Source: Syntrophus aciditrophicus SB (lineage in GTDB: Bacteria > Desulfobacterota > Syntrophia > Syntrophales > Syntrophaceae). Taken from it: a stretch of 64,000 nucleotides of DNA. The translations under genes were made by a program, and so were the position numbers. The stretch is from NCBI RefSeq assembly GCF_000013405.1, contig NC_007759.1, positions 869,001 to 933,000 of the forward strand. The letters run 5' to 3'. Below the pieces are notes generated by a model that was not told the DNA's origin, ran no database searches, and saw nothing but the letters and a program-made list of their open reading frames with translations. Shown here one piece after another: positions 19,434 to 62,931 of this stretch. The stretch's first letter is position 1, and each line of letters opens with the position of its first letter.

Positions 19434-19754
19434 TCAGCAACTGCAGGTGCCCCCGCATCCGCCACCTTCGCCGTCATCCAGCGCGGAGGTGACGAGAAAT
19501 CCGGAGCCTCTGTCGGTTTCGACAAAATCTACAAAAACGGGTTTGATCTGTTCAAACAGATCCCGGGTGACCAGGAAGGTAATTCCCTGTTCATGGAATT
19601 CTTCATCGCCGTCGCGCAGCTCATCCAGAGCCAAGCCCAGTGATAGCCCGGATCAGCCGCCTTCCGTCAGCATCAGCCTGACGGGCTGAACCTCCGCCAC
19701 ATTCTGCAGAAACTCCTGGAGCTTCTCTCCTGCTTTTTCTGAAACCTGAAACAT
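19434..19754 (-). CDS. HesB/IscA-like selenoprotein with in-frame UGA
   Basis: 106 residues if the UGA at 19655-19653 is read as selenocysteine (Sec34). ATG 19754 follows a strong GGAGGAGAAAATA site. The N-terminal MFQVSEKAGEKLQEFLQ and LMLTEGG-U-SGLSLGLALDE match the HesB/IscA iron-sulfur A-type fold, with Sec exactly at the first conserved cysteine (GGCSG in ordinary members). The frame continues without interruption through 72 codons to a Cys-rich tail GEGGGCGGTCSC. HesB-like selenoproteins are a known family in anaerobes, and a tRNA-Sec gene lies in this window. A spontaneous stop mutation is the alternative, but would not be expected to fall at this Cys. Probable role: iron-sulfur cluster handling or a redox variant of it. 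Confidence 0.87.
19623..19653 (-). promoter_or_regulatory. Candidate SECIS hairpin
   Basis: Starting with the A of the UGA, AUCCGG-GCUA can pair with UGGC-UCUGGAU, giving a nearly continuous ten-pair stem with one bulged U and a ten-base loop. This is where a bacterial SECIS that recruits SelB should be. It sits slightly closer to the UGA than in the E. coli examples and lacks an obvious GU at the loop start, so it is a candidate found by eye. Confidence 0.45.
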
Positions 19755-62833: not shown

Positions 62834-62931
62834 GGAAGTGCCAAGGTCACTGGTGGGCCTCCCGGACTTCAAATCCGGTGTGGGGCGCTAAAACCGTCCC
62901 AGGTGGGTTCGATTCCCATGCACTTCCGCCA
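62834..62931 (+). tRNA. selC: tRNA-Sec (anticodon UCA)
   Basis: 98 bases including CCA. The acceptor stem has eight perfect pairs (GGAAGTGC / GCACTTCC), the extra length that marks tRNA-Sec. The anticodon arm CCGGA-CTTCAAA-TCCGG gives UCA, reading UGA. The long variable arm is TGTGGGGCGC...GTCCCAGG. The T-loop is TTCGATT. It directly supports reading the in-frame UGA at 19653-19655 as selenocysteine. Right next to it begins DNA with lower GC and phage-defence-type genes, consistent with its use as an integration site. Confidence 0.96.

What the first reader, a model, noticed from the sequence alone, without database searches (positions are those of the whole stretch)
19434..19754. HesB/IscA-like protein with an in-frame UGA at the conserved cysteine
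The codon at 19655-19653 is TGA. Upstream and downstream are one continuous frame of the HesB/IscA fold, the UGA replaces the first conserved cysteine (GGC to GG-Sec), a stem-loop follows immediately, and tRNA-Sec is in this window. An A-type iron-sulfur carrier with selenium as ligand or redox group is chemically unusual. HesB-like selenoproteins are known as a family, so the novelty is the context: next to a Trm112-like and a TPR gene, in an organism with a Cys-rich tail GGCGGTCSC.
Basis: partly seen in the sequence, partly recalled or inferred. Interest (0 to 1): 0.85.

Follow-up and report, generated by a model that had tools for sequence, protein, structure and literature searches.

The report
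Known HesB-like selenoprotein, ordinary but real
The gene almost certainly reads its internal UGA 'stop' as selenocysteine in a small iron-sulfur-carrier-like protein, but this is a known and widespread selenoprotein family, already listed in 2006 for the bacterium this window most probably comes from.

Summary
Window 19434-19754 (-) is one frame of a 106-residue HesB/IscA protein with UGA at 19655-19653, where the first conserved Cys belongs (aligned to the GGCSG-type cysteine of IscA). The genome has selA, selB, selD and tRNA-Sec. A bacterial-SECIS hairpin (19633-19617, loop UGGAU, 25 nt after UGA) keeps its five core pairs in 40 of 42 Sec relatives against 1 of 9 non-Sec relatives, with extreme synonymous-codon constraint. 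The UGA is conserved in Syntrophus and across the phylum. A nonsense mutation is effectively excluded.

It is not new. The protein passes NCBIfam NF038090 'IscA_HesB_Se'; 216 of 394 phylum genomes have this family, most listed members with one in-frame TGA. A 2006 paper lists a HesB-like selenoprotein in Syntrophus aciditrophicus, most probably this genome. The Cys-rich tail is a family feature. The TPR neighbour is conserved in the order, the Trm112-like one only in the genus.

Side finding: Syntrophus has an expanded set (5 copies here: four with UGA, one with neither Sec nor Cys). Two UGA copies lie in tandem beside arsenic-type transporters, and no canonical IscA/SufA/ErpA was found in this genome. 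Function is untested; a Sec/Cys iron or Fe-S site is the likeliest reading.

The parts
19434..19754 (-). HesB/IscA-family selenoprotein gene, 106 aa plus stop (terminal TGA 19436-19434)
   Evidence: NCBIfam NF038090 106.8 bits against cut-off 85; Pfam PF01521 27.4 against 26.3; AlphaFold model matches IscA/SufA structures
19653..19655 (-). In-frame UGA = Sec34, at the position of the first conserved Cys of IscA
   Evidence: TGA conserved in Syntrophus relatives and in most phylum members
19617..19633 (-). Bacterial SECIS core hairpin: UGGCUC / loop UGGAU / GAGCUG
   Evidence: core pairs kept in 40/42 Sec and 1/9 non-Sec relatives; compensatory C-G to U-A change in L027
19437..19460 (-). Cys-rich C-terminal tail GCGGTCSC, aligned with the C-terminal Cys-Gly-Cys-Gly of IscA
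62834..62931 (+). tRNA-Sec gene (anticodon UCA)
   Evidence: ARAGORN; Rfam RF01852 77.4 bits
18385..19353 (-). TPR-repeat protein gene, same strand, 80 nt downstream; pairing conserved in the order
   Evidence: next to HesB on the same strand in L022, L023, L097-L101
19898..20101 (-). Trm112-like zinc-ribbon protein gene upstream (coding part); pairing seen only in Syntrophus
   Evidence: PF03966 48.5 bits; L022, L023

Best explanation
This is a genuine member of the known HesB-like (IscA_HesB_Se) selenoprotein family. SelB with Sec-tRNA-Sec reads the UGA at 19655-19653 with help of a hairpin 25 nt downstream, giving full-length HesB with Sec34 where IscA has its first cluster-binding Cys. The product folds as an A-type (IscA) domain; Sec34 and the tail cysteines most likely form a metal or Fe-S site in an oligomer, with a selenol/thiol redox or metalloid-binding role as the main alternative. 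Shown here: frame, homology, predicted fold, machinery, SECIS conservation and UGA conservation. Inferred: actual Sec insertion, metal or cluster binding, and the physiological role. The confidence below is for identity and Sec decoding; for the iron or Fe-S binding role it is about 0.5.
For: Frame and UGA. NF038090 'IscA_HesB_Se' over its cut-off. selB 373.6 bits, selA 615.3 bits, selD 379.6 bits, all over cut-off, in a one-contig genome; tRNA-Sec. SECIS core kept in 40/42 Sec relatives against 1/9 non-Sec, with synonymous constraint up to p = 8e-27. UGA kept in all three other Syntrophus genomes searched; Cys in the sister copy L021 with a remnant stem. Sec34 aligns with the GGCSG Cys of IscA-type structures; fold match to 1r94, 1x0g, 2d2a, TM-score about 0.7. 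HesB-like selenoprotein listed for S. aciditrophicus in PMC1794560.
Against: No protein-level proof of Sec here. For longer segments the minimum-energy RNA fold is a different structure, so SECIS support rests on comparison rather than on a single fold. Because the hairpin hardly varies there is only one double compensatory change. A disruption mutant of the distant Methanococcus HesB-like selenoprotein was not impaired in nitrogen fixation and its function is unclear (PMC11097638), so genetics does not yet support an Fe-S role. The tail is disordered in the model (pLDDT under 50), so proximity of tail Cys to Sec34 is inferred.
Confidence: 0.93

Rival explanations
1. The protein is a selenium-based redox or metal(loid)-handling protein on an IscA fold, not an Fe-S carrier (same identity and Sec decoding, different function).
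For: Paralogues with vicinal Cys-Sec and few or no tail Cys lie in tandem beside ArsP, SBF-type (ACR3-like) and ArsR genes. No Fe-S assembly gene recognised among the immediate neighbours of the window gene. Function unclear in Methanococcus. A 2026 review holds that most uncharacterised selenoproteins are probably redox proteins.
Against: The window-type protein keeps both the first Cys position (as Sec) and C-terminal Cys residues as in true A-type carriers; the arsenic-type context belongs to the paralogues, not to this gene.
Confidence: 0.4
2. Nonsense mutation or pseudogene: the UGA is a real stop and the gene is broken.
For: Only that UGA is formally a stop codon, and that one paralogue in the same genome (L015) has lost the site altogether.
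Against: UGA at the same column in dozens of relatives, including Syntrophus; rest of the frame conserved; SECIS hairpin under strong synonymous constraint; full Sec machinery.
Confidence: 0.01
3. The UGA is read as another amino acid by a changed code or by near-cognate readthrough.
For: None found. (A diverged paralogue type, L123 and L124, has Trp at the site.)
Against: Homologues have Cys at this column (L021 and others); tRNA-Sec and selA/B/D are present; this gene itself ends at a second UGA where relatives with the same CxC end have TAA or TAG; the SECIS hairpin is specific to Sec members.
Confidence: 0.02

Closest known systems
HesB-like selenoprotein (NCBIfam NF038090 IscA_HesB_Se; related TIGR01911 HesB_rel_seleno)
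   Same: Sequence over the NF038090 cut-off, Sec at the UxGP-type site, SECIS downstream, anaerobic deltaproteobacterial host; a HesB-like selenoprotein is listed for Syntrophus aciditrophicus in PMC1794560.
   Different: USGL rather than UxGP. It falls far below the cut-off of the methanococcal-type TIGR01911 (23.5 against 66.35 bits).
A-type Fe-S carriers IscA / SufA / ErpA
   Same: Fold (1r94, 1x0g, 2d2a), position of the first Cys, and Cys residues at the C-terminus.
   Different: Sec replaces the first Cys; below the cut-offs of TIGR00049, IscA, SufA and ErpA models; no isc/suf gene recognised beside it.
DsrR of Allochromatium (2k4z)
   Same: Same fold, found by Foldseek at rank 8.
   Different: From my own knowledge it lacks the ligand cysteines; it resembles the Syntrophus paralogues without Sec or Cys more than the window protein.

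Membership tests
HesB-like selenoprotein, NF038090 IscA_HesB_Se | Score over curated cut-off (85 bits) | tested here: met
   106.8 bits
HesB-like selenoprotein, NF038090 IscA_HesB_Se | In-frame UGA at the first conserved Cys position, conserved in relatives | tested here: met
HesB-like selenoprotein, NF038090 IscA_HesB_Se | bSECIS: 3-9 nt loop with G in the first two loop positions, 4-16 bp stem, 16-37 nt from the UGA (model as given in PMC13188914) | tested here: met
   loop UGGAU, 6-bp stem with two G-U pairs, 25 nt
HesB-like selenoprotein, NF038090 IscA_HesB_Se | selA, selB, selD and tRNA-Sec in the genome | tested here: met
HesB-like selenoprotein, NF038090 IscA_HesB_Se | Selenium actually present in the protein | not testable with these tools
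   needs 75Se labelling or mass spectrometry
TIGR01911 HesB_rel_seleno (methanococcal type) | Score over curated cut-off (66.35 bits) | tested here: not met
   23.5 bits; best in the genome 31.8
Canonical A-type carrier (TIGR00049 / IscA / SufA / ErpA) | Score over curated cut-offs | tested here: not met
   TIGR00049 48.5 against 58.8; IscA 33.7 against 150.6; SufA 33.1 against 136.2; ErpA 36.5 against 117
Canonical A-type carrier (TIGR00049 / IscA / SufA / ErpA) | IscA fold | tested here: met
   AlphaFold mean pLDDT 82; Foldseek 1r94 E 3.1e-7
Canonical A-type carrier (TIGR00049 / IscA / SufA / ErpA) | Binds and transfers Fe-S clusters | not testable with these tools
   biochemistry needed

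The most novel reading that the evidence does not exclude
In Syntrophus, Sec-HesB proteins are the only A-type proteins: a diversified set in which Sec is an iron or Fe-S ligand (window type), an arsenic-linked Cys-Sec site (tandem paralogues) and a lost site (paralogues kept without Sec or Cys). This would be a selenium-based replacement for IscA/ErpA.
Probability: 0.2. Interest if true: 0.65.

Novelty: already known. Interest (0 to 1): 0.2.

Why it matters
As a finding it is ordinary: a clear, correctly read example of a documented selenoprotein family. If Sec34 were shown to ligate iron or an Fe-S cluster, it would be a very unusual selenium ligand in Fe-S trafficking. The absence of any recognised canonical A-type carrier in this one-contig genome makes Syntrophus a reasonable place to test that.

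Tried and rejected
Nonsense mutation: rejected by UGA and SECIS conservation. Novel neighbourhood: rejected; TPR pairing is conserved in the order, Trm112-like in the genus, and no neighbour is conserved across the phylum sample. Organism-specific Cys tail: rejected. Terminal UGA as a second Sec: rejected, since relatives with the same CxC end stop with TAA or TAG (L024, L027, L050, L060). RNA folding alone: inconclusive (z -1.1 to -2.9, competing fold). A first version of the codon test mis-sorted three CU-type paralogues as non-Sec and crashed; one search is the corrected one. Papers on IscA with Sec beyond the HesB-like reports: none relevant found.

Full report
Observation. The minus strand at 19754-19434 encodes MFQVSEKAGEKLQEFLQNVAEVQPVRLMLTEGG(UGA)SGLSLGLALDELRDGDEEFHEQGITFLVTRDLFEQIKPVFVDFVETDRGSGFLVTSALDDGEGGGCGGTCSC, then a terminal UGA. 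The internal UGA is exactly at 19655-19653. A GGAGGAG ribosome-site-like stretch precedes the ATG. ARAGORN and Rfam both find tRNA-Sec at 62834-62931.

Family. The protein scores 106.8 bits against NCBIfam NF038090 'IscA_HesB_Se' (cut-off 85), and just passes Pfam Fe-S_biosyn. It stays below the cut-offs of the canonical IscA, SufA, ErpA and TIGR00049 models, and of the methanococcal-type TIGR01911. Alignment to solved structures puts Sec34 on the first conserved cysteine of E. coli and Aquifex IscA-type proteins, and the tail GCGG on their C-terminal GCG. An AlphaFold model (mean pLDDT 82, Sec entered as Cys) matches IscA 1r94 and 1x0g and SufA 2d2a at TM-scores of about 0.7; the Cys tail is disordered in the model.

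Sec machinery. The one-contig genome (3,179,300 bp) has selB 373.6 bits, selA 615.3 bits and selD 379.6 bits, all over cut-off; selD itself carries one in-frame TGA.

SECIS. The hairpin UGGCUC-UGGAU-GAGCUG lies at 19633-19617, with the loop beginning 25 nt after the UGA and a G at loop position 2, within the bacterial SECIS model quoted in PMC13188914. Single-sequence folding is equivocal: a 56-nt segment prefers another pairing. Comparison is decisive. In 42 distinct Sec relatives the five core pairs are intact in 40, in 9 non-Sec relatives in 1 (L021, the near sister of the window gene). At the synonymous sites of the Ala-Leu-Asp-Glu motif the Sec genes use GCT 39/40 (29/223 elsewhere in the same genes, p = 8e-27), CTG 42/42 (p = 1e-16) and GAG 41/42 (p = 2e-15), while non-Sec relatives use GCT in 1/7. 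The p-values treat related sequences as independent and so overstate the case, but the contrast is large. L027 shows a double compensatory change (GGUUC/GAACC). The core occurs once in the 64 kb window.

Conservation of the UGA. All three other Syntrophus genomes searched have a 72-77% identical copy with one TGA; in L022 and L023 it lies in the same gene neighbourhood. One Syntrophus genome also has a Cys copy with a remnant stem (L021). In 394 phylum genomes, 216 have a family match, and about four in five of the matches listed carry exactly one TGA. On a tree of 52 members the Sec/non-Sec label needs 8 changes, in line with the Sec/Cys exchange described in PMC1794560.

Context. The TPR gene follows on the same strand in Syntrophus and in L097-L101 from other families of the order. 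The Trm112-like gene is next to it only in Syntrophus. Neither is near the gene elsewhere in the phylum sample, and no neighbour is conserved across it. The context is therefore lineage-specific gene order, perhaps an operon with the TPR protein, and not a novel system.

Prior knowledge. PMC1794560 (2006) lists a HesB-like selenoprotein in Syntrophus aciditrophicus, among 11 HesB-like selenoproteins in bacteria; PMC9312934 and PMC13188914 list the family. I could not confirm the accession or which locus the 2006 list meant.

Paralogues. The same genome has five NF038090 matches: the window gene; a tandem pair with UGA beside two ArsP permeases, an SBF-type (ACR3-like) transporter and ArsR and MarR regulators; another UGA copy; and one copy whose site reads SQRNTP, with neither Sec nor Cys. 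Other Syntrophus genomes carry 7, 2 and 6 matches, including further non-Sec, non-Cys types kept between species. No canonical A-type carrier was found, in line with the report that such carriers are absent from many Delta-Proteobacteria (PMC2682760). The 2006 paper counts one HesB-like protein for the species, so three of the four UGA copies may have gone unlisted there.

Mechanism. Shown: frame, UGA, machinery, SECIS conservation, predicted fold. Inferred: Sec insertion (very likely), and an iron or Fe-S site formed by Sec34 and tail Cys (about even odds against a selenol redox or metalloid role). A disruption mutant of the distant Methanococcus protein was not impaired in nitrogen fixation, and its function is unclear (PMC11097638).

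Verdict. A correct reading of a real feature that is already known; low interest as a finding, moderate interest for the paralogue set.

Noticed in passing
L061 5344-6460 (G000:C1:2954343-2955384): Tandem pair of UGA-bearing HesB paralogues with vicinal Cys-Sec (CUGA, CUGP), beside two ArsP permeases, an SBF-type (ACR3-like) transporter, ArsR and MarR regulators and a thioredoxin-like gene; suggests an arsenic or metalloid link.
   Followed up: partly
L015 (G000:C1:1415611-1415892), L114, L115, L123, L124: HesB paralogues in several Syntrophus species with neither Sec nor Cys at the site (QSQRNTP, QDEGSKRP, EGGWRGP), yet retained between species; possibly roles without a metal site.
   Followed up: partly
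whole genome G000 (no window coordinates): No canonical IscA/SufA/ErpA over cut-off in a one-contig genome (PF01521 and TIGR00049 searches); only Sec-HesB relatives match.
   Followed up: partly
L033, L034, L035, L044, L056, L057, L029: Many phylum genomes carry adjacent tandem Sec and Cys copies of this gene, possibly a selenium-dependent isoform pair.
   Followed up: no
L010 (G000:C1:1086624-1087553): selD of this genome carries one in-frame TGA and is itself a likely selenoprotein (a known situation).
   Followed up: no
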